From positions 1 through 48,026 of the forward strand of contig QCLY01000006.1 of NCBI GenBank assembly GCA_003214195.1: 48,026 bases of DNA. The letters run 5' to 3'. Below, piece after piece: positions 19,025-37,714 of this stretch. The first letter of the stretch is position 1. Each line of letters starts with the position of its first letter. Both the position numbers and the translations under genes were made by a program. Below the pieces are notes generated by a model. It was given only the letters and a program-made list of their open reading frames with translations, was not told where the DNA came from and did not search any database. Source of the stretch: Prochlorococcus sp. AG-418-G23. GTDB taxonomy: Bacteria > Cyanobacteriota > Cyanobacteriia > PCC-6307 > Cyanobiaceae.

Positions 19025-19067
19025 TTGACAGTTGATCTAAAATAAGGGGCAATTAGCTCCTTTTTTT
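19025..19067 (+). promoter_or_regulatory. Dyad promoter motif plus leader hairpin
   Basis: TTGACA-GTTGATC-TAAAAT (19025-19043) is followed by GGGGC-AATTA-GCTCC and T7 (19046-19067) directly touching ATG 19068. Promoter, short leader and a terminator-like hairpin thus abut the start codon, suggesting attenuation or hairpin control of translation. Confidence 0.6.
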
Positions 19068-19373
19068 ATGTCTTGTTCAGTCACCTCCGTGTTTACTTTT
19101 AAAATTGAAAGCACTTTCGATGAATGGGCTGCAATATTTGATAGTGCAGAAGCAGATAAAAGGCATTCAGAATTTGATATTAAACCACTTTTCAGAGGAG
19201 TAAGCAAGGATGATCCTCAAAAAATAATTGTTATTCATCAAGCTCCAGAAGGTAATGTTCAAAAGTTTGTGGAAGCCAATGGTGACTGGATGGCAACTCA
19301 TAGAGTTGACTTATCAACAATGGAGGAATCCTCTTGGACTGCTTCATTAACAAAGGATAGTTGTTGTGATTAA
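19068..19373 (+). CDS. DUF3764 family protein
   Basis: 101 residues; FDEWAAIFDSAEADKRH, LFRGVSKDDPQKIIVIHQAP and MATHRVDLSTMEESSW are the conserved blocks of this cyanobacterial family of dimeric ferredoxin-like fold (recall). Cytosolic, function unknown. Start fixed by the leader hairpin. Confidence 0.7.
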   Translation: MSCSVTSVFTFKIESTFDEWAAIFDSAEADKRHSEFDIKPLFRGVSKDDPQKIIVIHQAPEGNVQKFVEANGDWMATHRVDLSTMEESSWTASLTKDSCCD

Positions 19374-19378
19374 CTAAA

Positions 19379-19544
19379 TGGTAAATCAAGATCAAAAAAA
19401 TCAATATTACTAGAAAAAGCTTAAGACGAACTTAAGGCAATTTGCACCAAGTCCCAAGATCAATCTGGGGCTAGAGATATGGAAGTAAAAACCTTACTAA
19501 GAGAACTTCGAGGGTTTATGAAAAAGAAATTGATGACGATATAA
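19379..19544 (+). pseudogene. Decayed small gene
   Basis: ATG 19379 runs into a stop after ten codons, but the other frames read EKA-stop-DELKAICTKSQ and ARDMEVKTLLRELRGFMKKK to 19544, a plausible helical protein broken by a stop and frameshift. Parent family not identified. Confidence 0.4.
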
Positions 19545-19564
19545 ATAGGGAAGTGTAATATTTA

Positions 19565-19789
19565 CTAATTTTCCATAACACCCGCTATTTTTCGCTCTGC
19601 TAGTCGTTTTTTTAGAATTGAATAATTTTGTGAAGCCCATTTTCGAGAAATATCAAATTCAGCATCTAAATCTTTTTGAAGTGATTTGATTATTTTGAAT
19701 ACTTCTTTGATGCCTAGATAAATTACTAACAGCACCTTAGTTATGTTTATTACAACAAATGCTATCTTTTCAATTCTTTGATCTTGCAT
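19565..19789 (-). CDS. Hypothetical protein with membrane segment
   Basis: 74 residues: hydrophobic segment at about 9-30, then a charged helical part (ISRKWASQNYSILKKRLAER). Function unknown. Confidence 0.5.
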   Translation of the reverse strand: MQDQRIEKIAFVVINITKVLLVIYLGIKEVFKIIKSLQKDLDAEFDISRKWASQNYSILKKRLAERKIAGVMEN

Positions 19790-19866
19790 TTTAACTTATC
19801 CAAGTCCACTAAAATTAACAGAGGTAAGAAATTATGCAAATTTTTTTTCAAACGTTTGAAATTAGA

Positions 19867-20115
19867 TTAAAAATAACTTCTAAAAATACTGGTTTTCTTC
19901 CAACCTTCTTCTAATAACTGTTTGTATTCTTTTCTTGCTGCTTCTATAGTTTCGATCCTGCTGCCTTTCATAACTGGTTTACTGCTTCTTTTATATACGC
20001 AGCCATAACTAATCATCATTGCATCAATAGTTGGCCCAGGCTTACTTATATCCTCAAATGGTTCAAATACTTTTATTCTTGATCTGTCCTTATTTATAAG
20101 GGTAAATTTCTCCAT
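19867..20115 (-). CDS. DUF1651-like protein (MEKFTL family)
   Basis: 82 residues: MEKFTLINKDRSRIKVFEPF, YGCVYKRSSKPVMKGSR and ARKEYKQLLEEGWKKT. The A-R-x-x-(Y/W)-x-x-L-x-x-x-G-W ending is that of DUF1651. Nearly identical to 44294-44542; a frameshifted relative is at 7853. Function unknown, but three copies in 37 kb suggest it moves with the island. Confidence 0.7.
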   Translation of the reverse strand: MEKFTLINKDRSRIKVFEPFEDISKPGPTIDAMMISYGCVYKRSSKPVMKGSRIETIEAARKEYKQLLEEGWKKTSIFRSYF

Positions 20116-20132
20116 AAATTAATAATAGTCAA

Positions 20133-20160
20133 AAAAAGGGGCGACATAAAATCCCTTTTT
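20133..20160. terminator. Symmetrical AAAAAGGG/CCCTTTTT hairpin
   Basis: Stem of 8 bp around a GCGACATAAAAT loop, with extra A's or T's on both sides, so it can work in both directions. It lies 18 bases before the ATG of 20115 (minus). A close relative is at 32923-32944. Confidence 0.55.
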
Positions 20161-20487
20161 ATGGTCATTAAACCAAGAAGAATTTTTACCTATAATGCGA
20201 GCATGATTCTTCATTTTTTCAAATCTTTTTTCAGCTTTTTTAGACTATTTAGTAGCATTATTTTCAATATTATTGAATTTTTCGTAATTTAATATTATTT
20301 CTCATTCCAAGTTTTCTAATATCCAGATACATTGGGTTTGGACTGATATCACCAAGACCAAGAATTACAAGATCAAAAGATTAAATAACTACACCATGCC
20401 AATGAAAAACAAAATCTTCCTTTTATCAAAAAGTACCCAATGAGCATTTTATTGACGATTATTGCTTTTACTTTTTGATTCATGCCG

Positions 20488-20508
20488 GCCAACAAATAGC
20501 CAACAAAT
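20488..20508 (+). repeat. 11-bp period direct repeat GCCAACAAAT
   Basis: GCCAACAAAT at 20488 and 20499. The same unit recurs at 21864 and, inverted, at 23747, bracketing the protease and TPR genes. Otherwise 20161-20557 holds nothing I can support. Confidence 0.6.
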
Positions 20509-20557
20509 TAATACCAAAAGTTGAGAAAAGTCTAGCTCTAATATTAAAATTTTATTT

Positions 20558-21832
20558 ATGAAAAGTATTTATCTGGTCCCATTATTAATATTTGGATCAC
20601 TATTGTTTGAAACTAAACCTATTTTTGCCAATACAAATCTTTGCTCTGAGAAAATTTTAAGTGGTAGAAAACTTGTTAGTGCTTTCAAACCAAATGTTGT
20701 AGTTGTATATGCGGGCGATTTTTATGGAACTGGTTTTGTAATTGGTCAAAGTAATAACAAAACTTTTATTCTTACCAACAAGCACGTGGTTGATTCTGAA
20801 AAGAAAGTCTCAATAAAATGGTCAGATGGATCACTTAATAATGGAGCTGTTATTAAAAGTGCTCGTAATAGCAATGCTTGGAAGAGAGGTATTTGGGTTA
20901 ACGACATGGCATTGATAAGTATTAACGGAATCAAGGGGAGCGTACTCCCAATCAAAAAAACCAATGAATTTGCCGGAGAGAATGTAATTGCTATTGGAAC
21001 ACCAAAAGAATTTGAATTTACAGTTACTAGAGGAATTGTGAGTGCAGTAAGAGAAAGAGGACAAATAATTCAAACTGATGCCGCAATTAATAAAGGAAAC
21101 TCAGGCGGTCCATTAATCAATTCTTATGGATGCGTGGTTGGAATAAATACATACATATATAGAACAGAGGAAGGAGAACAAGGTCTAAATTTTGCAGTAT
21201 CTAGTGAAAGGATAATTCGTTTCTTAAATAACGCGGGCTATGCTTTTTTACAAGATAAATTTATTGATTTTAAATACAATAATATAGAGCCCTTTGAAAA
21301 TAATAATAAAGATTTCTCAAATGATTTAAAACTTTCTAGAGATAAAGGTTCTAGAACTATTAGGATTAATTTTACAAATGGTGGGAGATCAGATTTTATA
21401 AATTTAAAAGAAGATACTTCTAACTCTTCTAGAAAAAGAACCTTTTTTTACAATTCCTCTGATGATAAATATGATTTGGTAGCAACATGTGGGAAAGAAG
21501 ATCCTTCATTAAAAATTTATAGGGATTCTAATCTTTTACCTACAGACTTTAATAATGACAGAGATAGGCAAATTTTTATAAATTTATGTAATGCCACTAC
21601 ATACAGTAATAGAGTATTCTTGAATCCTTGGGAAAAATGGGGAACAGTTTATAAGACTATTCAATTAAGAAAAAATAATGAAAAAGAAGAAATACTTTTC
21701 TGGTGTGAACGGGGAGAATTCATAGATAAATTTGTTAATAAAGGGTCTTTTTATAATCAAATTCCATCTTTAGAAAACTTAAAGAATGATTTAGCTAGAA
21801 ATGTATGTACACCATATGATTTAAGAGGTTAA
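20558..21832 (+). CDS. Secreted trypsin-like (HtrA/S1C) serine protease
   Basis: 424 residues. A signal peptide (1-24, ending PIFA) leads to a protease domain with TNKHVVD (His76), NDMALI (Asp116) and GNSGGPL (Ser182), the full catalytic triad of the S1C family, as in DegP/HtrA. No PDZ domain follows; residues 230-424 are an unrecognised Cys-containing domain. Probably acts in the periplasm on misfolded or foreign protein. It is flanked by GCCAACAAAT direct repeats, as if it were cargo of one insertion. Confidence 0.85.
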   Translation: MKSIYLVPLLIFGSLLFETKPIFANTNLCSEKILSGRKLVSAFKPNVVVVYAGDFYGTGFVIGQSNNKTFILTNKHVVDSEKKVSIKWSDGSLNNGAVIKSARNSNAWKRGIWVNDMALISINGIKGSVLPIKKTNEFAGENVIAIGTPKEFEFTVTRGIVSAVRERGQIIQTDAAINKGNSGGPLINSYGCVVGINTYIYRTEEGEQGLNFAVSSERIIRFLNNAGYAFLQDKFIDFKYNNIEPFENNNKDFSNDLKLSRDKGSRTIRINFTNGGRSDFINLKEDTSNSSRKRTFFYNSSDDKYDLVATCGKEDPSLKIYRDSNLLPTDFNNDRDRQIFINLCNATTYSNRVFLNPWEKWGTVYKTIQLRKNNEKEEILFWCERGEFIDKFVNKGSFYNQIPSLENLKNDLARNVCTPYDLRG

Positions 21833-21863
21833 AAATTTATCAATTTTTATATAAATATTGAAA

Positions 21864-21884
21864 GCCAACAAATGGCAAACAAAT
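21864..21884 (+). repeat. 11-bp period direct repeat GC(C/A)AACAAAT
   Basis: GCCAACAAAT at 21864 and GCAAACAAAT at 21875, same unit as at 20488. Between here and 22121 I see no gene. Confidence 0.6.
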
Positions 21885-22121
21885 ATATCTTTATTTTATA
21901 TCTCTAAGTAAACAGTACTCCGCAACTAATTAGTCATAGCTTATAGGCATAATGTCCTGATAGGGTTGTTAAGTTCTCCCCAATTTTGTAAGAAAGCAGC
22001 AATACTTTAGTTGTAAATAAGACAAATATAGTTATTGGAATTTATTTGAGACTCCATGTTGATTATTATTTATAGTTGTATTAACTTGTAATTACATCTC
22101 AGCTACCCCCTCAACAACCAA

Positions 22122-22301
22122 GTGCTTATTCCAAAGCTATCTCAAACAGAAGATTTGGTTGAAGCAATAAGAGTACTTATTAGAGATCCTTTTGGGAAAA
22201 AGAATTGGCAAATTATAGAGAATAAAGGAAAAACTAGATTAGGAGTAAGGTTTGAAGATGTTACTAGAACTTATAAAAGTATCACTTATAACTGGCTTTG
22301 A
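22122..22301 (+). pseudogene. Integrase N-terminal (arm-binding domain) fragment
   Basis: From GTG 22122 the frame reads 59 residues including AIRVLIRDPFGKKNWQIIEN and KGKTRLGVRFEDVTRTYKS. A 'W-x-I-x-x-x-(G)K-R-L-x-V-R-F' block followed by a Tyr-Lys-Ser segment is what I expect from the arm-binding domain of cyanobacterial tyrosine recombinases. The core-binding and catalytic domains (R..HxxR..Y) are absent, so this is a relic. It lies between GCCAACAAAT repeats, its plausible former binding sites. The similarity is from recall and needs a profile search. Confidence 0.45.
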
Positions 22302-22318
22302 TTAAATCCAAAATAGAA

Positions 22319-23056
22319 ATGAAATCATATATGAGAAACATTTTTATATCAATATCATTCTTTATTATGATCTTATCTTTTGAGATCTTACCAAGTACTA
22401 AATTCTCTAAATTTGGGTTAACCAACATTACACTATTACCCAAAGTTCTAGCTGAGTCAGGAAATTATTATTTACAGCAAACCTATGAAGCATTTAAGAA
22501 GGAAGATTATGGGAGCATCATATTTTACGGAGAAAAAGGTATCGAATATTATCGTAAAAGGAAAGAAACTAAAAGCCCAGAATATGTGAGCCTTTTAACT
22601 TTTGTGGGTCTCGCAAAAATGGAATCTGGTAATTTTCTTGGAGCTATTGAAAACTTTGAAGAATCTATCTTAATTTCACCTGATTCTTACGGTTATTCCC
22701 TACTTGGAAGCGCAAAAGAAAAAGCAAAAGATTTTGAAGGGGCTATAGAAGCTTTGACTAAATCGATAGAAGCATATAAAGGTAGCGATAATAAAATGAT
22801 ACTAGATCTCTTTAAGAGAAGAGGTTTCGCAAGATTGCAACATGGAGAATATAAAGGAGCTATTGATGACTATTCAGAGGCAATAAAGATTATTCCCGAC
22901 GCATCTTTTTATATGTTAAGAGGATACAGCAAGTTTTTAACCGGGGATTTTAGAGGAAATTGCGAAGATATATTTATGGCTGAAAAAATAGGAACTTTAG
23001 ATCAAAATTTAATAAATAAAGTGAAGGAAGACTATAAATGTTTACTTTTTGAATAA
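22319..23056 (+). CDS. Exported TPR protein
   Basis: 245 residues from MKSYMRN. A hydrophobic N-terminus (about 5-22) is followed by TPR-type helices: GNFLGAIENFEESILISPDS, KDFEGAIEALTKSIEAYKG and GEYKGAIDDYSEAIKIIPD, ending with a Cys-containing DFRGNCEDIFMAEK unit. TPRs bind peptides or partner proteins; target unknown. An in-frame TTG lies seven codons upstream. The ending resembles that of 23283-23696. Confidence 0.8.
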   Translation: MKSYMRNIFISISFFIMILSFEILPSTKFSKFGLTNITLLPKVLAESGNYYLQQTYEAFKKEDYGSIIFYGEKGIEYYRKRKETKSPEYVSLLTFVGLAKMESGNFLGAIENFEESILISPDSYGYSLLGSAKEKAKDFEGAIEALTKSIEAYKGSDNKMILDLFKRRGFARLQHGEYKGAIDDYSEAIKIIPDASFYMLRGYSKFLTGDFRGNCEDIFMAEKIGTLDQNLINKVKEDYKCLLFE

Positions 23057-23282
23057 TGTTTAAGAGAGATAATTAAATTAAATTTTTGTTATTTCAACAT
23101 AAAATTACTACATAAGTTTTAAAAACGACTTTTAGATTCTTTTTGTTCTCAAATGCTTCGGAGGAATTTGTAACTTATAAGAAAGTTTAAAACCTTTGAT
23201 TTTTGGAATTTTTATAGAAGAGGGTTATTTGGAGTGAATCTATGTAGGAAAAGTTAATCAAATAAATAAGAACTTGATTAAG

Positions 23283-23696
23283 TTAACATACCTTTTTAAT
23301 CCAATATGCAGCGTCTTCTTGACTTTCCTTAGGAATAATAGAACCTAGAGAAGCAACTTTTTTAAAGTCATTACATGCAGCCCTATTATCCCCAAGCATA
23401 TGTTTAGAATATCCGCGAATGTCATAAGCCATCGCCGCAATCTCACTCTTTAGATAATCAATTTCGTTAAGTAGGGTTAGTGCCTTATTTGATAAATTAA
23501 TAGCCTCTCTATGATTATCTCTAGCTGAACTATCCATCGCTGCAGAAATACTTTCAAAAATTTCATCTTCTATTCCTGCGTATGCATTAGATGGAGATAA
23601 AAATACCAGGCAACTAAAAGTAATATTAAAAAATGAAATAAAAATAGGATTTCTTATAAAGGAATAAGAAGAAAAGCTCTTTCTAAAATTATTCAT
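23283..23696 (-). CDS. Exported TPR-like protein
   Basis: 137 residues: signal peptide to about residue 40 (NAYAG), then a helical repeat with DNHREAINLSNKALTLLNE and RGYSKHMLGDNRAACNDFKK, close in pattern to the last TPR of the neighbour at 22319. Single-domain relative of that gene, in opposite orientation. Confidence 0.65.
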   Translation of the reverse strand: MNNFRKSFSSYSFIRNPIFISFFNITFSCLVFLSPSNAYAGIEDEIFESISAAMDSSARDNHREAINLSNKALTLLNEIDYLKSEIAAMAYDIRGYSKHMLGDNRAACNDFKKVASLGSIIPKESQEDAAYWIKKVC

Positions 23697-23746
23697 TAAT
23701 TTAAATTGTTCTTTCTAAGAAACTTTATAAATATAGCCATAAGAAT

Positions 23747-23767
23747 ATTTGTTGGCCATTTGTTGGA
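23747..23767 (-). repeat. 11-bp period direct repeat, inverted GCCAACAAAT
   Basis: ATTTGTTGGC at 23747 and ATTTGTTGGA at 23758, the reverse complement of the unit at 20488 and 21864. Confidence 0.6.
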
Positions 23768-23830
23768 TGCTATGAGCCAACGAAAATATTCTTAACTACG
23801 TTTTATTTATTTTATTAGTTAGGAATATTT

Positions 23831-24066
23831 TTATTTTTTCCTTTTCAGATCATCAATGACATAAATTGCAACCCCAATAAATAAAACCATCCAAAAAATT
23901 AAAGGACCATAGACGGGATGAATATTTTCACTAATGGATTTATCTAGCTCTAATCTGGATTTATTAATTTCCTTGATAAAGTTAGGACCTCTATCAAAAA
24001 AAACATAACAGATATAACTCCAAGCCCAAAGAAAATAAATTTTTTAATAGTATTAAAATTATCCAA
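23831..24066 (-). pseudogene. Frameshifted two-helix membrane protein
   Basis: From TTG 24066 one frame gives KKFIFFGLGVISVMFF; after a run of eight T (plus-strand A 23996-24003) homology-like coding continues in the next frame: RGPNFIKEINKSRLELDKS, then a second helix and DDLKRKK. A one-base change in the homopolymer explains it; sequencing error or phase variation are alternatives. Confidence 0.45.
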
Positions 24067-24169
24067 AATATTCTTTAAAAATAGAAAGTAAAGTATTTCT
24101 AAATTAGTTAATTTATTAATAAATAACTATAAATTAATAGATTTTTTTAGACTTAAAAAGTTAAAAGTG

Positions 24170-24388
24170 ATGTATGACATTCACAAAAAAATTCAAATAA
24201 TTTCTATGATTAAGAAAACAACAATCAGAATGAAATCTTTGCTCTCAAGTAAAAGATCAAAAGCTATATTAGGGATTGGTTTAATAGCAATTAGTATTGG
24301 TGCACTATCAAAAAAGGTTATCAGCAATCCAGTAGGAGGATGTATGAAAGGCACTCAAGAATTGACTTTAAATAAAGGGATAAAGTAA
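24170..24388 (+). CDS. Hypothetical membrane-anchored protein
   Basis: 72 residues from ATG 24170; one hydrophobic segment (ILGIGLIAISIGAL) and a short C-terminal tail with one Cys. Shorter starts (MIKKTT, MKSLLSS) are possible. Confidence 0.5.
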   Translation: MYDIHKKIQIISMIKKTTIRMKSLLSSKRSKAILGIGLIAISIGALSKKVISNPVGGCMKGTQELTLNKGIK

Positions 24389-24497
24389 AGCTAGGAAAGC
24401 TAGTATTGGAAGTGGTATGAGTTTCATTTCTTATTCAGTTTTTGTAAAACAGGCAATAAGGGCCATGTTTTGGGACATCTAGTTTTTCCTCAGCCTT

Positions 24498-24601
24498 TTA
24501 ATAATCAATTACACCAACTGCCCATGAACCGCAGATATCTTGGTGCTTTGACAACTAGTCAAAAGTATTAAAATTATAGGTGCCAACAGTAATCTTTTCA
24601 T
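24498..24601 (-). pseudogene. Frameshifted small lipoprotein with MKRLLLAP start
   Basis: ATG 24601 reads MKRLLLAPIILILLTSC, a lipoprotein signal with lipobox LTSC, using the recurrent MKRLLL cassette. The same frame ends at 24509, but a neighbouring frame gives CGSWAVGVIDY-stop (24498), which looks like the genuine tail. A single shift between them would restore a ~33-residue lipoprotein. Confidence 0.4.
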
Positions 24602-24729
24602 TAAAAGAGGTTTTTATCCCGCTATTTTAGAACGACTGTCAATTAAATATTTCCCCTTATATCAACTTAATATAAGTAATTATCAGATTAAATTTATGCT
24701 TAAATATTTCAGTTCTCATTAACTTACAA

Positions 24730-24948
24730 ATGTATTATTCAGAAACTAAAGTCATAATGGGTGGTCTAGCCCATGTTCCAATCTTAATTTTTATAGTAAA
24801 TTTTATTAAAGGAAAGTTTGAATCTTTAGCATTAAAAGTAGTTGAAGTTAAGACCGAAAAGCCAAAGGTAAAAGTAGTTGAACTAAAGGAAGAGGAAGTA
24901 AAATCGGAAGAGTTAATCGCAAATGAATTTAAAGAAGAAGCAGAATAA
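24730..24948 (+). CDS. Membrane anchor with acidic/Lys-Val repeat tail
   Basis: 72 residues: hydrophobic segment at about 10-26, then a low-complexity tail with VEVKTEKPKVKVVELKEEE, an alternating charged, Val-rich stretch. Followed by a terminator. Function unknown. Confidence 0.55.
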   Translation: MYYSETKVIMGGLAHVPILIFIVNFIKGKFESLALKVVEVKTEKPKVKVVELKEEEVKSEELIANEFKEEAE

Positions 24949-24969
24949 CGTAAAAAAAAATTTAACAAA

Positions 24970-24995
24970 AAGAGGGATAAAACTCTCTTTTTTTT
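24970..24995 (+). terminator. Rho-independent terminator
   Basis: AAGAGGG-ATAAAA-CTCTCTT (one G-T pair) followed by a T-run ending at 24995. Closes the gene at 24730. Between it and 25173 only a 14-codon frame (25077) is seen. Confidence 0.75.
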
Positions 24996-25173
24996 ATATC
25001 TTCTTCAATTAAAGATTTCTGAGATAAATTTTTTGATTTATGTAGAGAATATCAAGAAGAGATCTAACCTCAAAAGATGGCAGAAATTTTAAGGGATTAC
25101 GCTGATATATTAGATGGTTGATAAATTCAAAAGAAAAACCTAGATTACATAAGTAAATTTTAAGCAGAATAAA

Positions 25174-25551: not shown

Positions 25552-25559
25552 CATCGACT

Positions 25560-25614
25560 ATGCGCATACTATTTGTACCTTTTAATTAATCATGATTGAC
25601 AGTCGATCTAACAT
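25560..25614 (+). promoter_or_regulatory. Stub cassette plus dyad promoter motif
   Basis: ATGCGCATACTATTTGTACC then TTTTAATTAATCAT and the dyad GATTGAC-A-GTCGATC (25594-25608) with TAACAT (25609-25614). Other copies of the stub plus dyad are at 32469 and 36842. Drives the gene at 25641 through a degenerate hairpin leader ending CCCTCTTTTTTT. Confidence 0.6.
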
Positions 25615-25640
25615 AGTAGTGATAAAACCCTCTTTTTTTA

Positions 25641-25793
25641 ATGGCAGTTTCAGAATTAAATGAAGACACACAGGATCAAATATTTGATCTTTTAGAGAAT
25701 TTGCAACAAATAGAGAAACTTAAAAATAAAGATATGCGTATTTTGTTAGATAAAATAGTCAGACAATATGGAGGGAAAGTCGTAAATAAATGA
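25641..25793 (+). CDS. 50-residue helical protein
   Basis: MAVSELNEDTQDQIFDLLEN, then helical and basic; ends GKVVNK. Its TGA overlaps the next gene's ATG (ATGA), so translation of the secreted protein is probably coupled to it. Confidence 0.6.
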   Translation: MAVSELNEDTQDQIFDLLENLQQIEKLKNKDMRILLDKIVRQYGGKVVNK

Positions 25794-26044
25794 AACGCTT
25801 ACTACTCCCACTACTAGCACCCTTTGCTTTTATGACACCTCTCTACTCATGTCCAATAGAGGGTAATGATAAAGACCAACTTCTAAGTGAGTTATGCAAT
25901 ATAGGTGATGATGGCAAATGGGAATCTAACAGACTTAATGAAATAATTATTCTCGCTAAGTATGAGAAGTTACCTCCTGAAGGCACTAAGAAAGATAATC
26001 GCACACTTGCAGCATTTATTTGTGAGTTTGGGCATCTCATATGA
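25790..26044 (+). CDS. Secreted protein with MKRLLLPLLA cassette
   Basis: 84 residues. Signal peptide MKRLLLPLLAPFAFMTPLYS, then a mature part with three Cys (CPIEG, ELCNIG, FICEFG). The first ~30 bases are nearly identical to those at 31774 and 32113 although mature parts differ. The stop again overlaps an ATGAAACGCT. Confidence 0.65.
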   Translation: MKRLLLPLLAPFAFMTPLYSCPIEGNDKDQLLSELCNIGDDGKWESNRLNEIIILAKYEKLPPEGTKKDNRTLAAFICEFGHLI

Positions 26045-29684: not shown

Positions 29685-29781
29685 TTTCGCTTTATTGAAG
29701 ATTAAGCAATATTAAACTATAAAAGTGCTTTTAATTTTAAAAGTAAACGCAGAGGTGATATATAGTGCAAGAAATAAAAAA

Positions 29782-29818
29782 GAAGCTCATGCTTCATATT
29801 TTAGATCTACTGTCAATC
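29782..29818 (-). promoter_or_regulatory. Dyad promoter motif plus hairpin
   Basis: Minus strand: GATTGAC-A-GTAGATC, then TAAAAT, then GAAGC-ATGA-GCTTC and T6. Same order as at 19025. It points toward the formyltransferase fusion (start 29684). Confidence 0.6.
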
Positions 29819-30045: not shown

Positions 30046-30056
30046 GGCTTTTCATT

Positions 30057-31106: not shown

Positions 31107-31153
31107 TCGGGGCGACAGGATTCGAACCTGCGACCTAGTGCTCCCAAAGCACT
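31107..31153 (-). repeat. tRNA-Pro(TGG) 3'-half fragment (E)
   Basis: Minus strand: AGTGCTTTGGGAGCACTAGG, then TCGCAGGTTCGAATCC and TGTCGCCCCGA. Anticodon loop TTTGGGA gives TGG (Pro), followed by variable region, T-arm and acceptor strand; no D-arm half. Its downstream flank (CAGTAAGTCTCAGCTAATAA) is shared with fragment I. Confidence 0.85.
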
Positions 31154-31299
31154 TAACATCCTTCTAAATACTTGGTTTTCTATTTTTAGCTTAATAATTA
31201 TTTGCTAATTATTAAATTGATAAAGACAAACAAACAATTACATGTAATAAATATGACATGATTTATTTTATTAACTTTTAAGTTTAAATTTCTTTCAAT

Positions 31300-31770
31300 A
31301 TGAATAAGTTATTAGCCTCCCCATTAGCAATTTGTATATTAGTTCTAAGTGCTTGTTCGCCTAAGACAGATATATCTGAGTTAGAAGTAATAGATGTTTT
31401 ATTTTGTGCAAAAAGAAATAAATTATCATTAAGTGTCGATGAAATTTACGAGACTAAATATCCGTGGATCTTCAATAAAGAATCTGGTAAGTTATACGAA
31501 CGTGACATGGATAAAAATGAGTTATATCCCTTAGAAGTATTTATTGAAGGTGAAAGCAAATTTGTATATGAATCGAAATTAAATGGGAATATTTTAGAAA
31601 TAGAGGAAACTGAATACTATCCTGTTAATGAAAAAATTTATGGTAAATATTTAATTGATTTAGATAAGTTAAAATCAAAATCATCATATAGATATTCTGA
31701 TGGCTACAAAGAAAGATATAAAGATGATTGTATTAGAATTCCATTACCTGATGGCATAACAATAAGATAA
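31300..31770 (+). CDS. Lipoprotein of unknown function
   Basis: 156 residues; signal with lipobox LSAC (Cys19), then an acidic, Tyr-rich domain with a Cys near 36 and another near 147. Followed after three bases by a MKRLLLPPL secreted gene, so cotranscribed. No family recognised. Confidence 0.65.
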   Translation: MNKLLASPLAICILVLSACSPKTDISELEVIDVLFCAKRNKLSLSVDEIYETKYPWIFNKESGKLYERDMDKNELYPLEVFIEGESKFVYESKLNGNILEIEETEYYPVNEKIYGKYLIDLDKLKSKSSYRYSDGYKERYKDDCIRIPLPDGITIR

Positions 31771-31773
31771 AAA

Positions 31774-32112
31774 ATGAAACGCTTACTACTCCCACCACTA
31801 GCTGCAATCGCTTTACCTACTGCTGTTACTGCAGAGGTTATTTACCTTGAGTGTAATTTAGATGGTTATTTAGGAGATATTGAAATCACACTTAACGAGA
31901 GTGAAAGAAAAGTGACCTATTTATATGGCTCTGGGCCTGCATTTACATATACCGCTTTATTTACTAAAGATAAAATTTTATTTGGTAGTGTAAGAGATAT
32001 CACAATAGATAGAACAACTGGAAATATTTTTCTTCATTCGACGGATGAAAGTAGTCCAATCGCTTCAAAAGGTAAATGTAAAAAAGTTAACAAGACTTTG
32101 AATTTGTTCTAA
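31774..32112 (+). CDS. Secreted protein with MKRLLLPPLA cassette
   Basis: 112 residues: signal peptide MKRLLLPPLAAIALPTAVTA, then YLECNLDGYLGDIEITLNES and a late KGKCKKVNK. A beta-rich mature part with two Cys. Its stop directly abuts the next cassette ATG. Function unknown. Confidence 0.7.
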   Translation: MKRLLLPPLAAIALPTAVTAEVIYLECNLDGYLGDIEITLNESERKVTYLYGSGPAFTYTALFTKDKILFGSVRDITIDRTTGNIFLHSTDESSPIASKGKCKKVNKTLNLF

Positions 32113-32472
32113 ATGAAACTCTTACTCCTCCCACTACTAACAGCTTTCGTTTTACCTCCTGCTGTTAATGCAGAACCAGCATCAAGATATAAAGTCAGTT
32201 TCATAAATTCTCCTTTTACTGAAAACGAGGAAACTGCATTGCGATTGGTAAATGAAAACTATGGTAAACAGTTAGAAAACAAGCTTATTAATAACACCTA
32301 TTATTCACATCCTTGGTATTTCATCTACAAACAAAGAGAATGTATTTTTAGAGTTTATGCCAAGGAAGATATGCCAACTCATACAGCAAACATTGAAACT
32401 TTTACTGTTGATATTTGCAATAAAACAATAAAAGCAATGTGGTCACCTGATGTATATCTAGAAGTTAAATGA
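32113..32472 (+). CDS. Secreted protein with MKLLLLPLLT cassette
   Basis: 119 residues: signal peptide MKLLLLPLLTAFVLPPAVNA, mature part with Cys near 82 and 106. The first ~30 bases match those of the previous gene but the mature parts do not. The stop overlaps a further ATGAAACGC stub. Confidence 0.7.
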   Translation: MKLLLLPLLTAFVLPPAVNAEPASRYKVSFINSPFTENEETALRLVNENYGKQLENKLINNTYYSHPWYFIYKQRECIFRVYAKEDMPTHTANIETFTVDICNKTIKAMWSPDVYLEVK

Positions 32473-32520
32473 AACGCTTACTATTAGCACCTCTTAATTA
32501 ATCATGATTGACGGTTGATC
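32469..32520 (+). promoter_or_regulatory. MKRLLLAPLN stub plus degenerate dyad
   Basis: ATGAAACGCTTACTATTAGC then ACCTCTTAATTAA (a 10-codon frame), followed by GATTGAC-G-GTTGATC (32506-32520). The same stub-plus-dyad is at 36842 (minus) and 25560. The -10 position here is AATTTT, so this copy may be inactive. Confidence 0.5.
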
Positions 32521-32546
32521 AATTTTTTATATTTACTAAGAGGATC

Positions 32547-32813
32547 TTAATTTAACCAATTAACTAACCACCCTACTCGAGCTATAAATAAGGCCAGAGA
32601 AAGAACTGTAATGAAAAAATATACAGTTTTTTCTTGATTACTAAAAATATTAATTAAAGAAAAAATTATTGCTAAAAGAAAAAATAAGACCTGAATAATA
32701 ATACTTGTTATACTTATGAACTCAGCCGTGAAAATACTAAGAACTGAACGAATTGCATCAAAAATTTCAAGAAGGGATCCTAAAATTAAAAATATAAAAG
32801 GAATAATTTTCAT
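32547..32813 (-). CDS. Hypothetical membrane protein
   Basis: 88 residues from MKIIPF (an ATG two codons upstream also fits) with three hydrophobic segments and no motif I recognise. Confidence 0.5.
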   Translation of the reverse strand: MKIIPFIFLILGSLLEIFDAIRSVLSIFTAEFISITSIIIQVLFFLLAIIFSLINIFSNQEKTVYFFITVLSLALFIARVGWLVNWLN

Positions 32814-32959
32814 TATCAAAAAGGTTTTTTAAATATTTTAGGATTACTTTTACAAATAAAACTTATGGGTCATTAAATATAAAAAATATATTTATATTAA
32901 ATGCTTACTACTTGCGTAAAAAGGGGCGACAAAAATCCCCTTGAAAGTTCCACCATAAG

Positions 32960-32981
32960 GCACGTAAATGACACGCATATC
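32960..32981 (+). repeat. 11-bp direct repeat CACGTAAATG/CACGCATATC
   Basis: GCACGTAAATG at 32960 then ACACGCATATC at 32971, arm-site-like, about 90 bases before tRNA fragment F. A hairpin AAGGGG-CGACAAAAAT-CCCCTT lies just upstream at 32923-32944. No gene is seen in 32820-33432. Confidence 0.5.
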
Positions 32982-33071
32982 ACAACTAATTAGACCGCTC
33001 TAGTCCATACTTTTTTTAATAAAGTACTGTTAGAACAATAAGTCTCAGCTATAGCTTAAACGCGCCTAGTT

Positions 33072-33165
33072 CTTTGGGAGCACTAGGTAGCAGGTTCGAA
33101 TCCTGTCGCCCCGACTCTTAAAAACCAAGTCATACTAGCAAGTTACCCACACTCGCTTTTTTATT
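33072..33165 (+). repeat. tRNA-Pro 3'-half fragment (F) with 3' flank
   Basis: CTTTGGGAGCACTAGG to CGCCCCGA (33072-33114), then CTCTTAAAAACCAAGTCATA and a weakened hairpin with CTTTTTT near 33160. Opposite orientation to fragment E, so E and F form an inverted pair around the secreted-protein module. Confidence 0.8.
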
Positions 33166-33432
33166 GGAAATTATGTCGGTTACTTCAGCCGAAAAGACGC
33201 CGACAATTGCGGGAGTATTCAAAGTTATTCTTAGTTATTCATAAATATTCTTTGGTTCTTATTTGTTTATCAAGTTCTACTTTTTAAGTATTTTATTACT
33301 CTGTTTGTATGCCTTCTGATTCATATATTTCAATAGATCCATCATTATCCTTTTGTTGAATAAAATTTTTATTTAAAGTAATTGATTAAAATAAAAATAG
33401 AAAATGGAAATTAATAGAAATTAATAGAAATA

Positions 33433-34470
33433 ATGACTTCCGCTTTTACTAAAGACTTACTACAGATAATTTCTGAAAGAGAAGAAAAAAATAGGGCAGA
33501 TGAGTTAATTATTCAAGGAGGATATGCTAGTCCATGTGCTGTAGAGGCATTAAGAGCACTAACAAATATTAAATTAACACTAATATATGGTTGTCAAATT
33601 AGGGACGGCAAGAGAAAAGCAAGACATTCCGGCTTCTTATACCAGAATCATGCAGATGTGAATGTATTTTTTCAGGAAAAATATTGTCATGCAAAAATAT
33701 ATTGTTGGTTAAAGGAGGGGGAAGTCGTTGAAGTTTTATCAGGATCTGCGAACTTCTCGAGGGATGGTTTAACTCAGGACGGAACAGAAATTCTTTATAA
33801 AATTGACAGTAAAGATTTTAAGAGAACTTATGACTTCTTGGAAAACAATATCGCTAATAGTACTTTATGTAGAGATTATGAAATAAAAGAATCAAATAAG
33901 AATAAACAAAAAAACGTCGATGTTTATAAAAAAGTAATGCCCCGAGATGAGATTGGTGTTAAAAATCGCAACTACAAGATTCTTCAAAATGATCCTCCTA
34001 AGATAAATTTATATTTTCATGACGCTACAAATGAAAATAAATTTGGGAGAATTAATGGATATAGCGAAACAAGTCAAGTCAATAAAGATGATTGTGAATT
34101 ATCAATAAGTACGAAATTAATAGAGGCAATCCCAAAATTTTTCCCAAATGATGGGATTAATCAAAAAGCTGGAATGGGTCAAGGTAAAGAAGGGAAATCT
34201 GATATTCCAAATGCAACTTTTTGCTTCGAAAAAGATGAACTAACCATGCCCATGAGTTTTCAAGGTACTGTGCCAAGCAAATCTAAGGGTAATAGATATA
34301 AAAATATAAGGTCATTTCCTGAAGGTGCAGTACTTGGTCGATATTTAAGAAAAAAATTGGGTATTAATTCAGATGAAAAAATCACCAAGGAAATTTTAGA
34401 TAAATATGGGAGAGATTTTCTTACCATAACTCATCATGGAGGTGGAGATTATTCAGTAGATTTTGGGTAA
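33433..34470 (+). CDS. NgoFVII/BfiI-type PLD-fold restriction endonuclease
   Basis: 345 residues. The N-terminal domain (about 1-160) is a phospholipase-D-fold nuclease: HAKIYCW (His86, Lys88), SGSANFS (Asn107) and a following Glu119, the HxK..N..E set of NgoFVII/BfiI enzymes, which cut DNA without metal. The C-terminal part, about 190-345, with NLYFHDATNENKFGRINGYS, fits the DNA-reading domain. No DNA methyltransferase is in the window, so it is either an orphan or targets particular DNA. Lies between tRNA fragments F and G as cargo. Confidence 0.75.
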   Translation: MTSAFTKDLLQIISEREEKNRADELIIQGGYASPCAVEALRALTNIKLTLIYGCQIRDGKRKARHSGFLYQNHADVNVFFQEKYCHAKIYCWLKEGEVVEVLSGSANFSRDGLTQDGTEILYKIDSKDFKRTYDFLENNIANSTLCRDYEIKESNKNKQKNVDVYKKVMPRDEIGVKNRNYKILQNDPPKINLYFHDATNENKFGRINGYSETSQVNKDDCELSISTKLIEAIPKFFPNDGINQKAGMGQGKEGKSDIPNATFCFEKDELTMPMSFQGTVPSKSKGNRYKNIRSFPEGAVLGRYLRKKLGINSDEKITKEILDKYGRDFLTITHHGGGDYSVDFG

Positions 34471-34694
34471 TTCTTACTAAGATACATTATCTAATTCATA
34501 TACTTTTAAATTAGATTCTTTATTTTTTTTTGAGAAGTGATATTTTTGAGACCTCTCGACATTAATAGTTATGAATTTATTAGGATTTTTTATCGCCATA
34601 AGTACCTCTCCAATTTTCAATCCACATCGCTAAATAGTATTGTTCTTCAATATTTAGCAATTTATTTATTTTCAGAATACATTACTAATAAATT

Positions 34695-35381
34695 TCAACA
34701 TGCCTTTTTAAAGACTTCCTCGGCAAGAGATTTAGGTGGAATTGCAACTTTTGGTGGACCATCTATACCTAATAAAAGTTTCTTACAATCTAATGTAATT
34801 GTATACTGATCATCCCAACCATCAAATACTGAAATATTTCTATAATTTCCTTTTTTTATTAAATTTTTAAAATCATATTGATTCGCTGCAATTCTTTCAT
34901 AGCCTTCTCTTACAGGACAATTTTCTCTATATAGCATTATCATTTTTTTATGTTTTTTATTATAGCTTTTAAGTTTATATTTTTTTTTCATACCTTCAGA
35001 AGTTTCAATATTATCTAAATCAACTGTTTCTCCATTTCTAGTTTCTTTAGAATCAACTAATCTATTTGATACTTCTTTATTATTACAACTTAAATACATT
35101 TGATAAGTTGAGTAATAGGTTAAGTCTGATATTTCATTTACTACCTTAAATAAAGTAAATTTGATATGAATCTCATCTTCACTTATTAGGGGGAATTCTG
35201 TAAATAAATCTTTTTCACTACAACTAAACATTCTAAAATTATTTTTAACTTCCCCATATTCGGTACAGATTTGAAATTGTTCTAAATTTGGAATTGCAAC
35301 TTCCTTATAGATATTTTTATTTGTATTACTACATGCGATACAAAATATCGATGTAATAAAAAGGGTAAAATATTTTCTCAA
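34695..35381 (-). CDS. Lipoprotein of unknown function
   Basis: 228 residues with lipobox CIAC near 17, then a long domain with several Cys and a C-terminal LGIDGPPKVAIPPKSLAEEV segment. Envelope-anchored. Convergent with the nuclease gene. No family recognised. In 34471-34694 I see nothing firm. Confidence 0.6.
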   Translation of the reverse strand: MRKYFTLFITSIFCIACSNTNKNIYKEVAIPNLEQFQICTEYGEVKNNFRMFSCSEKDLFTEFPLISEDEIHIKFTLFKVVNEISDLTYYSTYQMYLSCNNKEVSNRLVDSKETRNGETVDLDNIETSEGMKKKYKLKSYNKKHKKMIMLYRENCPVREGYERIAANQYDFKNLIKKGNYRNISVFDGWDDQYTITLDCKKLLLGIDGPPKVAIPPKSLAEEVFKKAC

Positions 35382-35478
35382 AATAAGTTTTTCAACCTTA
35401 TTATTTTTTATTTTAATTCTTATGTCAATAAGAAAATATTATTCCAAGAACTAAGCAAATCATTATCTTTAGATTTCT

Positions 35479-35500
35479 TTTGAGCGAGATTTGAGCAAGA
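35479..35500 (+). repeat. 11-bp direct repeat TTTGAGC(G/A)AGA
   Basis: TTTGAGCGAGA at 35479 then TTTGAGCAAGA at 35490, exactly adjacent, about 130 bases before tRNA fragment G. Arm-site-like. 35382-35798 otherwise holds only that fragment. Confidence 0.6.
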
Positions 35501-35630
35501 TTTTGCTTATTTATGGACAACCTTGCTATAACTTTCTATTTTTTAAGACTCACAAATTTTTTTTAATACCAACTCATAAGCTATAGCTTCACTTGTTTAT
35601 TTGGCCTACTGTCGCAAATTGTCTAACGGA

Positions 35631-35675
35631 TGCTTTGGGAGCACTAGGTCGCAGGTTCGAATCCTGTCGCCCCGA
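35631..35675 (+). repeat. tRNA-Pro(TGG) 3'-half fragment (G)
   Basis: TGCTTTGGGAGCACTAGG through GCAGGTTCGAATCC to CGCCCCGA, essentially intact 3' half. Followed by the shared flank CTCTTAAAAACCAAGTTATA and CTCGCTTTTT. Confidence 0.85.
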
Positions 35676-35798
35676 CTCTTAAAAACCAAGTTATACTATC
35701 TAGTCTCCCAACTCGCTTTTTAATTTCTCATTTGTCTTAAAATCTCAGCGGGCGAGGATTTGTATATCTTTGGATAACTTTGGAGGGTGTGTCGCCCG

Positions 35799-36044
35799 TT
35801 ATAGCCATACTTCTGGTGTTACTCTCCAACCCTGACTAATTAATTTTTTCCATTCTTCTCTAGCCTTTTCAATCTTTAATTCTTCCCTCATTTGCATTGC
35901 TGGTGTTTCTTTTCCTAATACCCCAACTATTTTTCCAGTATCAACAAACATATATTCGAAGAATTTATCTTTGTTCTTTTTATTTATTGTGAATCTTTTT
36001 ACTCTTGATCTTCTGGAATTTATTAGCCAATGTTCTTTATTCAT
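35799..36044 (-). CDS. DUF1651 family protein
   Basis: 81 residues: HWLINSRRSRVKRFTINKKN and AREEWKKLISQGWRVTPEVW, the DUF1651 blocks. Distantly similar to the MEKFTL genes at 19867 and 44294. Unknown function. Confidence 0.75.
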   Translation of the reverse strand: MNKEHWLINSRRSRVKRFTINKKNKDKFFEYMFVDTGKIVGVLGKETPAMQMREELKIEKAREEWKKLISQGWRVTPEVWL

Positions 36045-36084
36045 ATATTTATTTTGGTCTAAAATCCTTTTTTTGTATTAGTAG

Positions 36085-36648
36085 CTAAGCTAATTCTTTT
36101 TTACTCAATATCTTATCAATAAATCCTTGGAATCTTTTGAATAATTTTTCATCGCTTCTTTTCTTTAATACAAATAATGTCCCTTTATCTCCTCTGCATA
36201 TTCTTAGCTCCTTACTTAAATAGGTGATATCTAGCCATCCTTTTTGCTCTTTTTTTATTTCTGCTAATGCTTTTACTTTATTGAATCCTATTTGGGGACC
36301 TATTAATCCAGCATGAGTAAATTTAACTCCAACCCTAATATCATTGATTGGGTTTAACTTGGCTATGATACCGGTCCCAACAATTGCATTAATACCTCTT
36401 GGTTTAAGCAAGTTCATGGCACTTGAATTTAAAGGATCCAAGATTTGTAGATTATCTACTAATGGAGAATAATTTAAAAATGGAGCATTAGAACTGCTCC
36501 ACCTTAACTCCCATATTCCCTGTAATTTTTCAATTTCTTTACTAAGAATGAAATTAGAATTGCCCTCAAGTTTTGTAGCTAATAATAAAATATCTTTTGA
36601 ATTTGGTTTATCAAGAAGTAATTTTATTAGCTTTTGCTCTGTCTCCAT
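36085..36648 (-). CDS. PAP/fibrillin family protein
   Basis: 187 residues. LQGIWELRWSSSNAPFLNYS, LQILDPLNSSAMNLL, VGVKFTHAGLIGP and GWLDITYLSKELRICRGDKG-TLFVL are the conserved blocks of plastid-lipid-associated (fibrillin) proteins, lipocalin-like proteins at thylakoid membranes that bind lipid or quinone. About usual length. Commonly core in cyanobacteria; this copy sits in an island module. Confidence 0.85.
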   Translation of the reverse strand: METEQKLIKLLLDKPNSKDILLLATKLEGNSNFILSKEIEKLQGIWELRWSSSNAPFLNYSPLVDNLQILDPLNSSAMNLLKPRGINAIVGTGIIAKLNPINDIRVGVKFTHAGLIGPQIGFNKVKALAEIKKEQKGWLDITYLSKELRICRGDKGTLFVLKKRSDEKLFKRFQGFIDKILSKKELA

Positions 36649-36732
36649 TATTCCATCTTAAGGATTAAATAATGTCATTGTTGATGAGTGTGTTTTCCTA
36701 TTACTGCAAAATAAGACCATCAAGCTTTTGAT

Positions 36733-36792
36733 TTAACCAATCAAAGAAATAATTAGAGTCATAATCTTTTCAGCAATAAATCTTCTATTCAT
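36733..36792 (-). CDS. Tiny 19-residue peptide behind leader cassette
   Basis: MNRRFIAEKIMTLIISLIG-stop, beginning right after the hairpin and T-tract of the dyad-promoter leader. The ATG sits where the DUF3764 gene's ATG sits in the same cassette at 19068, so it may be translated or be the stump of a lost gene. Confidence 0.35.
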   Translation of the reverse strand: MNRRFIAEKIMTLIISLIG

Positions 36793-36837
36793 AAAAAAAG
36801 AGGGTTTTATGCCTCTAAGTTAGATCGACTGTCAATC
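36793..36837 (-). promoter_or_regulatory. Dyad promoter motif plus leader hairpin
   Basis: Minus strand: GATTGAC-A-GTCGATC (36823-36837), TAACTT (36817-36822), then AGAGG-CATAAAAC-CCTCT and T7, then ATG 36792. It is the best-preserved example of the cassette. Confidence 0.6.
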
Positions 36838-36841
36838 GTAA

Positions 36842-36874
36842 TTAATTTAGCGGTGCAAGTAGTAAGAGTTTCAT
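36842..36874 (-). CDS. MKLLLLAPLN stub
   Basis: ATGAAACTCTTACTACTTGC then ACCGCTAAATTAA: a 10-codon frame overlapping the upstream TGA as ATGA and leading straight into the dyad motif. Same peptide and arrangement as 32469. Either a leader peptide or a truncated signal-peptide gene. Confidence 0.4.
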   Translation of the reverse strand: MKLLLLAPLN

Positions 36875-37011
36875 TTATTTATAAATATATAGGCAGAATA
36901 TAACCAGATTAAAAAAACACCAATTGCAATTGTGCTTCCATAAATAAGAAAATTCCAAATTTTACTTATTTTGGATTTTTTATAATTTTTTTCTTCTTCT
37001 TTACTAATCAT
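36871..37011 (-). CDS. 46-residue membrane peptide
   Basis: MISKEEEKNYKKSKISKIWN then one hydrophobic helix and IFINK. Starts by a one-base overlap with the upstream TAA (TAATG) and ends overlapping the stub ATGA. Confidence 0.55.
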   Translation of the reverse strand: MISKEEEKNYKKSKISKIWNFLIYGSTIAIGVFLIWLYSAYIFINK

Positions 37012-37172
37012 TACTTCTTTTTAGATTTTCTTGTTCCACCATAAGAATATTGACTTTCTTTTGAAACAATATGCCAACACTCCGTACAGCAAAAAATCCA
37101 ACTTTTGTAATTTATAGATTTAACTCGATAATGGATTTCATCCTCTTTATTGCATAAATCACACTTTTTCAT
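37011..37172 (-). CDS. 53-residue zinc-ribbon-like protein
   Basis: MKKCDLCNKEDEIHYRVKSI, then SWIFCCTECWHIVS and a basic end. Two CxxC pairs separated by about 25 residues are a standard Zn-ribbon layout. It begins inside the MYGIAITY gene and ends overlapping the next one: three overlapping genes in one transcript. Confidence 0.65.
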   Translation of the reverse strand: MKKCDLCNKEDEIHYRVKSINYKSWIFCCTECWHIVSKESQYSYGGTRKSKKK

Positions 37173-37260
37173 TTTTAAAAGTCATTTTGAAGGTTAGATA
37201 CGCAAAGCCCCCCAGTAATAACATACTAATAACACCATAAGTAATTGCTATGCCGTACAT
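37159..37260 (-). CDS. 33-residue membrane peptide MYGIAITY family
   Basis: MYGIAITYGVISMLLLGGFA-YLTFKMTFKNEKV, close copy of the peptide at 26079. First of a chain of overlapping small genes. One membrane helix. Confidence 0.6.
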   Translation of the reverse strand: MYGIAITYGVISMLLLGGFAYLTFKMTFKNEKV

Positions 37261-37282
37261 ATTCTGACTATTTAATTACTTG

Positions 37283-37672
37283 CTAATCCCACATAGAGAG
37301 ATCTGAATCTCCTGTTGATCTTTGCATCCAATGGATTTTCCAAATCCCATTAATCTTTTTGAAGATAGAAGTCACGGTTGGTAAATCATCATTATGAGTT
37401 CCTTTGAAAGAGAATTTTGACCCAAGAGTAAAAACACACATTGCTACATCGGCAGAAAGAAATTCAAACTTATGAATTTTTGTAATTTCTGCTTTTTCCT
37501 GAACAACATCGCCAGAATTCATCATTTCTTCGAATCCCTTTGCACTTATTGGATTTCCACTAGGTCTGATAAGTAAGAAATCTGAAGTGGCATTATTTAC
37601 AAAAAATGAGCCCATTTTTTGTGGTGTTGCTAACTCATACAACATAGATTCAATTGTTTCTCGATCTGTCAT
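37283..37672 (-). CDS. NTF2-like (SnoaL/DUF4440-type) protein
   Basis: 129 residues; DRETIESMLYELATPQKMGS, SADVAMCVFTLGSKF and IFKKINGIWKIHWMQRS are typical of the NTF2-like cone fold used as small enzymes or binding proteins. Starts at the ATG that follows the T8 of the leader cassette at 37673-37714. Ligand unknown. Confidence 0.75.
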   Translation of the reverse strand: MTDRETIESMLYELATPQKMGSFFVNNATSDFLLIRPSGNPISAKGFEEMMNSGDVVQEKAEITKIHKFEFLSADVAMCVFTLGSKFSFKGTHNDDLPTVTSIFKKINGIWKIHWMQRSTGDSDLSMWD

Positions 37673-37695
37673 AAAAAAAAGTGTTTATCTCTCTA

Positions 37696-37714
37696 AGTTT
37701 AGATCGACTGTCAA
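37696..37714 (-). promoter_or_regulatory. TTGACA-N7-TAAACT motif
   Basis: Minus strand TTGACA-GTCGATC-TAAACT, then a weak AGAGAGATAAACACT leader with T8 and ATG 37672. Serves the NTF2-like gene. Confidence 0.6.

What the first reader, a model, noticed from the sequence alone, without database searches (positions are those of the whole stretch)
19025..37714. Promoter, hairpin, T-tract and ATG packed into one leader cassette
After the dyad motif, GGGGC-AATTA-GCTCC-T7-ATG (19046), AGAGG-CATAAAAC-CCTCT-T7-ATG (36793), and weaker forms at 25615 and 37673 place a terminator-like hairpin directly against the start codon; at 29782 and 45154 the hairpin is present without an adjacent ATG. No Shine-Dalgarno is visible between hairpin and ATG. 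This arrangement implies premature termination, RNA-protein control, or leaderless-like starts after processing. Stem sequences differ but pairing is kept.
Basis: partly seen in the sequence, partly recalled or inferred. Interest (0 to 1): 0.7.

Follow-up and report, generated by a model that had tools for sequence, protein, structure and literature searches.

The report
Promoter starting inside a terminator hairpin
In the ocean bacterium Prochlorococcus, many unrelated genes carry the same 50-base start cassette, in which transcription seems to begin inside a stop-signal hairpin, so that a gene could switch itself on while stopping transcription that runs in from its neighbour.

Summary
The core motif occurs in 189 of 200 genomes of the window's genus; in a family draw only this genus of 59 had it. 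It precedes 43 protein clusters, 27 of them singletons. Pairing covaries: 1204 Watson-Crick pairs against 1146.7 in swaps (0 of 1000 reach it); A-C mismatches are depleted, G-U pairs hardly, which points to sense-strand RNA. TAAnnT looks like a -10 box. In MED4, 10 of 14 mapped RNA 5' ends lie exactly 6 nt behind such a box. This puts +1 at the arm/loop border, so the gene's own mRNA would lack the 5' arm; self-attenuation is unlikely. I propose a self-insulating promoter: the hairpin ends transcripts arriving from upstream, own transcripts escape. Start sites and termination are inferred, not measured. A predicted difference between codirectional and divergent sites was not seen (p=0.2), and sliding controls did not support type B pairs.

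The parts
19025..19043 (+). cassette 1: motif TTGACAGTTGATCTAA and -10 box TAAAAT (19038-19043)
19044..19067 (+). cassette 1: hairpin AAGGGGC-AATTA-GCTCCTT (19044-19062) and T-tract; predicted +1 at 19050/19051
19068..19373 (+). DUF3764 gene, 101 aa
25596..25640 (+). cassette 2: exact motif 25596-25611, -10 TAACAT, T7; no hairpin (0.0 kcal/mol); predicted +1 25621
25641..25793 (+). 50-aa ORF, its stop overlapping the ATG of the next ORF (25790-26044)
   Evidence: no Pfam match
29776..29816 (-). cassette 3: motif 29816-29801 (A variant), hairpin 29795-29782, T6
29722..29775 (-). apparently decayed start of a second DUF3764 copy behind cassette 3 (ATT where the other copy has ATG)
   Evidence: 34 of 37 nt identical, 29758-29722
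36793..36835 (-). cassette 4: exact motif 36835-36820, hairpin 36816-36799, T7; predicted +1 36810
36733..36792 (-). 19-aa ORF MNRRFIAEKIMTLIISLIG, relatives behind the cassette in other genomes
37673..37714 (-). cassette 5: exact motif 37714-37699, weak hairpin (-1.0), T8; predicted +1 37689
37283..37672 (-). DUF3804 gene, 129 aa
45133..45176 (+). cassette 6: motif TTGATAGTCGATCTAA, hairpin 45154-45169 (-5.9), T5; no start codon close by

Best explanation
A genus-specific, portable, self-insulating promoter cassette. TGATTGACAGTYGATC (about -28 to -13) plus the -10 box TAAnnT recruit RNA polymerase; transcription starts at the border between 5' arm and loop of a short intrinsic-terminator hairpin. 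The 5' arm is the discriminator between -10 and +1 and is (but for at most a base or two) not transcribed from this promoter, so own mRNAs have no hairpin, escape termination, and carry a short unstructured C/U-rich 5'UTR ending in a U-run right before AUG, perhaps for S1-type initiation without Shine-Dalgarno. Transcripts coming from the upstream gene contain both arms and the U-tract and are ended just before the start codon. Shown: the cassette, its spread, its fixed geometry, the pairing covariation. Inferred: start site, -10 role, termination, S1.
For: Motif in 189/200 genomes of the genus (65/66 of those at least 90% complete and at most 5% contaminated), 24/300 across the family, all in one genus of 59. 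T at offset 3 in 97% of 166 sites while offsets 1-2 vary; no other conserved box in the 45 nt upstream that were printed. MED4 spacing: 10/14 mapped ends 6 nt behind TANNNT, no other spacing more than twice, giving +1 at offset 10; 5' arms start at offset 4-5 in 199, and loops at offset 10-12 in 200, of the 226 of 256 leaders that fold. Covariation: 5/5 groups more stable than swaps (at most 3/300); WC 1204 vs 1146.7+-9.0 (0/1000), AC 37 vs 52.6 (1/1000 as low), GU 144 vs 154.0 (107/1000 as low). T-tract kept in 16/18 and hairpin of -4 or better in 13/18 leaders without a nearby start codon. Upstream ORF codirectional in 89 of 115 classified, 66 of them within 60 nt (crude ORF calls). One BLAST cluster carries both stem types (7 A, 7 B, 3 other). 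PMC7843447 says Rho appears absent in cyanobacteria (passage).
Against: No transcript data for these promoters. Hairpin strength does not differ between codirectional (n=89) and divergent (n=26) sites (p=0.2), and T-runs are if anything longer at divergent ones (6.8 vs 6.3, p=0.07). In fixed registers only 3 of 19 pairs covary at under 5% (type A 6-18 and 5-19, one in the second B set), and for both type B sets a partner slid by +2 pairs as often or more (125 vs 121 of 138; 194 vs 182 of 222). Hairpins are short (mean -5.5 kcal/mol; shuffled -1.1) and lack the A-tract. 30 of 256 leaders do not fold, nor does 25596; 37714 hardly does. In type A offset 10 is C, so +1 would slip to A at 11. Generic codirectional gaps also mostly lack a terminator (323 of 351), so its absence upstream of the motif is not telling. 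Relatedness is not controlled in the swap tests.
Confidence: 0.5

Rival explanations
1. Attenuator or RNA-binding leader: the gene's own transcript starts upstream of the hairpin, folds it, and a protein, RNA or ligand decides between termination and read-through.
For: Sense-strand RNA pairing is conserved; hairpin plus T-tract lies just before the ATG.
Against: No -10 conserved at a fixed place in the 45 nt upstream of the motif (one at variable distance is not excluded); the near-invariant T of TAAnnT and the fixed arm position would be unexplained; MED4 spacing puts +1 at the loop; no Rfam family reaches its gathering score at these leaders in the window.
Confidence: 0.2
2. DNA operator: the arms are a dyad for a repressor next to the -10 box, and no RNA hairpin matters.
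For: The dyad straddles +1; the commonest stem sequences usually come with the motif (GGGGCAATTAGCTCC 26 of 32, GGGATAAAACCC 33 of 34, but those loci were fetched by the motif).
Against: Different stem sequences serve one gene family; G-U hardly depleted while A-C is, which a DNA dyad does not predict; T-tract kept.
Confidence: 0.12
3. Mere promoter plus pyrimidine-rich translation leader: G-rich discriminator and C/U-rich 5'UTR look complementary by composition; the hairpin has no function.
For: Geometry fits a discriminator and an S1-type leader; the hairpin is missing in some cassettes; the slid controls for type B.
Against: Covariation beyond composition in swap tests; T-tract and mostly the stem are kept where no start codon abuts.
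Confidence: 0.14
4. Mobile or recombination module: the cassette is spread by recombination in hypervariable islands, and its conservation mainly reflects recent copying.
For: Same cassette before 43 protein clusters, families with swapped leader types; host-type genes joined to phage-type genes at the cassette in L145 and L147.
Against: Conservation fades at the start codon and fits promoter geometry; covariation suggests selection, not only copying. Not exclusive of the best explanation; chimeric assembly of the two phage contigs is possible.
Confidence: 0.1

Closest known systems
Intrinsic (Rho-independent) terminator
   Same: stem with G-C pairs, 4-8 nt loop, T-tract right behind, sense-strand pairing conserved
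   Different: no A-tract, short stem, sits at the 5' end of a gene with a promoter -10 box directly before the 5' arm
Prochlorococcus -10 promoters (TANNNT, 6 nt to +1 at 10 of 14 MED4 ends)
   Same: TAAnnT box and spacing
   Different: a 16-bp conserved element directly upstream of -10; TTGACA only 7 bp from it, so not a -35; discriminator doubles as a hairpin arm
Terminators used as insulators in cyanobacterial synthetic biology (Kelly 2019, as described in a passage of PMC7843447)
   Same: a terminator in front of a gene shields it from upstream read-through
   Different: there terminators were tested between start site and RBS of a promoter; here start site and terminator interlock so that own transcripts lack one arm
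Attenuation leaders (trp type, T-box, riboswitches; recalled)
   Same: terminator hairpin near the start codon
   Different: those hairpins are in the regulated transcript itself; here predicted not to be

Membership tests
Intrinsic terminator | stable stem with short loop, pairing conserved | tested here: met
   (226 of 256 fold at -1 or below); but slid controls for type B not exceeded
Intrinsic terminator | U-tract directly after the stem | tested here: met
   (T-rich in 136/148 with and 16/18 without a nearby start codon)
Intrinsic terminator | A-tract before the stem (typical, not obligatory) | tested here: not met
   the -10 box lies there
Intrinsic terminator | RNA 3' ends in the U-tract | not testable with these tools
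   no RNA data
Sigma70-type promoter | -10 box TANNNT at fixed distance | tested here: inconclusive
   box met in sequence, spacing taken from other MED4 genes; the start sites themselves are not measured
Sigma70-type promoter | -35 TTGACA 16-18 bp before -10 | tested here: not met
   TTGACA ends 7 bp before TAAnnT; by reading, no TANNNT lies 16-18 bp behind it in either consensus
Attenuator / riboswitch leader | hairpin within the regulated gene's own transcript | tested here: inconclusive
   predicted not met from -10 spacing; start sites not measured
Attenuator / riboswitch leader | known aptamer or family | tested here: not met
   in the window only Glutamine-II at 3512-3574, none at these leaders at gathering scores
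Leaderless mRNA | start site at the start codon | tested here: inconclusive
   predicted 5'UTR 17-20 nt

The most novel reading that the evidence does not exclude
A natural, genus-wide class of one-way gates: portable island genes carry a promoter whose start site lies inside a terminator hairpin, so that the same 25 bp act as terminator for incoming RNA polymerase and as 5'UTR for the gene's own transcript. This would let genes land anywhere in hypervariable islands, and perhaps in T4-like cyanophage genomes, without coming under neighbour control.
Probability: 0.43. Interest if true: 0.82.

Novelty: new variant of a known kind. Interest (0 to 1): 0.65.

Why it matters
If true, it shows how a streamlined, apparently Rho-less bacterium makes its exchanged island genes self-contained: one 50-bp cassette supplies promoter, insulation and 5'UTR. 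It should be testable in MED4 start-site data (a dRNA-seq study exists as far as I recall; not held here) and offers a compact insulated-promoter design. It also points to an island regulon with an unidentified 16-bp recognition element.

Tried and rejected
Rejected: TTGACA as a -35 with a -10 in the loop (by reading, no TANNNT at 16-18 bp in either type). Rejected: Yfr11 as a cassette transcript; by its published coordinates it ends just upstream of the MED4 cassette at 358589 and by reading has its own terminator. Not confirmed: codirectional versus divergent difference. Not informative: absence of separate terminators (81 of 89 codirectional sites, but also 323 of 351 generic gaps). Slid controls failed for type B. 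The codon-position test of the 19-aa ORF was unclear: summed heterozygosity 3.31/1.68/3.28. In phage isolates the type B consensus gave ten partial matches only, E about 3, at most 47% of the query (type A was not searched there). Literature: nine searches ran (one search found none); judged by titles and the starts of abstracts, none is about this motif or arrangement. Voigt 2014, the MED4 start-site study, is not held.
Full report
What was checked. The window lies in a 1.18-Mb, 61-contig, 70%-complete genome. Most related loci carry Prochlorococcus titles, so I take it as Prochlorococcus. With GACAGTNGATCTAA and at most one mismatch the genome has 12 places, 8 of them in this window.

Spread. 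TTGACAGTNGATCTAA is found in 189 of 200 genomes of the genus, 65 of 66 of those at least 90% complete and at most 5% contaminated; the reversed control pattern hit in two genomes, once each. In a family-wide draw, 24 of 300 genomes match, all in one genus of 59.

Anatomy. From the fetched loci, 215 sites gave 185 with distinct downstream sequence and at least 100 nt behind them. I dropped 19 from other organisms or from viral contigs other than L145 and L147, leaving 166; L132, dropped there, later looked like a cassette too. The motif extends to TGA before it (-1 A 96%, -2 G 59%, -3 T 73%). Behind TAA, offset 3 is T in 97% while offsets 1 and 2 vary, which is the look of a -10 box TAAnnT. Between -45 and -4 no column exceeds 0.2 bit. 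A T-run of at least 4 follows in 153 of 166; the chosen start codon lies 24-30 nt behind the motif in 134 of 166; ATG sits 0 or 1 nt behind the T-run in 97 of 153.

Two stem families. Type A reads AAGGGGC-AATTA-GCTCCTT, type B AGAGGG-ATAAAA-CCCTCT. In the loci held, which were fetched by the motif, GGGGCAATTAGCTCC has the motif in 26 of 32 places (five more have a degenerate one by eye) and GGGATAAAACCC in 33 of 34; the shorter-loop GGGATAAACCC has it in 9 of 13, the other four standing behind an A-run like ordinary terminators. One protein cluster carries either type (7 A, 7 B, 3 other). 135 proteins of at least 15 aa fall into 43 BLAST clusters, 27 of them singletons, some perhaps no genes.

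Is the pairing real? Exchanging 3' halves between leaders of one type weakens the hairpin (z -4.3 for 47 distinct A, -3.7 for 37 distinct B, no swap of 200 reaches the native mean; 25 of 153 leaders of neither type were left out). With 256 distinct leaders (listings conditional on an ATG 20-26 nt behind nnT, and cut short), all five class/type groups tested beat their swaps (at most 3 of 300). Pair counts, register chosen for most Watson-Crick pairs in native and swapped alike: Watson-Crick 1204 against 1146.7+-9.0 (0 of 1000 swaps reach it), A-C 37 against 52.6 (1 of 1000 as low), G-U 144 against 154.0 (107 of 1000 as low), G-U/A-C ratio 3.9 against 3.0 (8 of 1000 as high). G-U being tolerated where A-C is not points to RNA of the sense strand. 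The weaker side: in fixed registers only 3 of 19 pairs reach 5%. There type A exceeds its slid versions (195 of 231 paired against 170 or fewer), but both type B sets are equalled or beaten by a partner slid by +2 (125 against 121 of 138, 194 against 182 of 222). The second B set was a mixture chosen by pattern. Related sequences are not independent.

Where does transcription start? Steglich et al. 2008 (PMC2518516; I read the outline with abstract, sections 7 and 11, and found passages) list 14 MED4 ncRNAs with mapped first nucleotides. In G015, which I take as MED4, 10 of these 14 ends lie exactly 6 nt behind a TANNNT; no other spacing occurs more than twice. Three others have one at 4, 5 and 7 nt, and Yfr12 is a processed end according to that paper. 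Applied to the cassette, +1 falls on offset 10. Among the 226 of 256 leaders that fold at -1 kcal/mol or below, the 5' arm begins at offset 4-5 in 199, and the first loop base is at offset 11 in 113, 10 in 62, 12 in 25 and 9 in 23 (the fold was started at offset 4, so the arm start is bounded there). The 5' arm thus fills the gap between -10 and +1, give or take a base.

Consequence. The gene's own RNA would begin about AAUUAGCUCCUUUUUUUAUG or AUAAAACCCUCUUUUUUUAUG, without hairpin. RNA arriving from upstream would hold the full hairpin and U-tract. Of 153 sites, 115 have a classified neighbour within 500 nt (38 dropped: 30 too near a contig end, 3 repeats, 5 with larger gaps); 89 of the 115 have a codirectional upstream ORF, 66 of these within 60 nt. 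Cyanobacteria appear to lack Rho, as PMC7843447 states in a passage seen. Pyrimidine-rich leaders have been proposed to serve S1-type initiation in MED4 (PMC5607370, passages). Where no start codon lies near, 16 of 18 leaders are still T-rich and 13 of 18 have a hairpin of -4 kcal/mol or better, which speaks for termination besides translation.

Against it. Hairpin energy does not differ significantly between codirectional and divergent sites (medians -8.5 and -7.45, p=0.2), and T-runs are not longer at codirectional ones (6.3 against 6.8, p=0.07). Stems are short. Generic codirectional gaps mostly lack terminators too (323 of 351). No RNA data could be consulted; the MED4 start-site study of Voigt et al. 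2014 is not held.

The exceptions in the window. The hairpin at 29782 stands before what looks like a decayed copy of the DUF3764 gene. The 36792 start is a 19-aa ORF. A pattern search of the loci held found 25 such ORFs, this one included; 24 have the motif upstream and the remaining one a degenerate form. Other genes behind the window's cassettes are DUF3764 and DUF3804 and small ORFs, one of which was searched and has no Pfam match (25641).

Phage link. Two metagenomic contigs with phage genes carry the cassette: L145 (UvsX-like recombinase, DnaB-like helicase, MazG-like) and L147 (PhoH-like, exonuclease) by PHROGs; from memory these are typical of T4-like cyanophages. In both, host-type genes meet phage genes at the cassette, so real recombination and chimeric assembly are both open. 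The type B consensus was not found in phage isolates.

Verdict. A real, genus-specific cassette whose conserved geometry is best explained by a promoter interlocked with a terminator. Confidence about 0.5 in the insulation mechanism, much higher in the anatomy.

Noticed in passing
window 3512-3574 (+): Glutamine-II riboswitch aptamer, 46.4 bits, above the gathering score.
   Followed up: no
window 36733-36792 (-); L013, L027, L043, L052, L194 and others: Conserved 19-aa ORF such as MFNRFIAEKIMTLLISLFS behind the cassette; by reading, in L013, L043 and L052 its stop overlaps the start of a next small ORF, and in L027 another gene follows directly. It may serve as a translational coupling leader.
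   Followed up: partly
L019, L088, L098, L179, L192, L193 and others; window 36854-36874 (-) with one difference: The 21-nt start ATGAAACGCTTACTACTTGCA recurs before many different continuations (20 contexts by pattern); in 6 of the 20 an exact part of the cassette motif follows 39-47 nt later. Perhaps a recombination site or shuffled signal-peptide start.
   Followed up: partly
L145 1-1130, L147 380-600: Host-type island genes joined to phage-type genes at the cassette.
   Followed up: partly
L019 (-), L040 (-), L063 (-), L098 (+): Cassette followed not by ATG but by a recurring stretch AATAGCAAAGTAYGC..., maybe a noncoding RNA.
   Followed up: no
window 24967-24992 (+): An ordinary terminator-like hairpin with almost the type B stem-loop (AAAAAGAGGGATAAAACTCTCTTTTT), behind an ORF.
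   Followed up: no
window 33433-34470 (+): NgoFVII-type restriction endonuclease domains (PF09565, PF20731).
   Followed up: no
window 11534-11580 (+): Degenerate cassette without hairpin but with the same spacing and T6-ATG before an 86-aa ORF.
   Followed up: no
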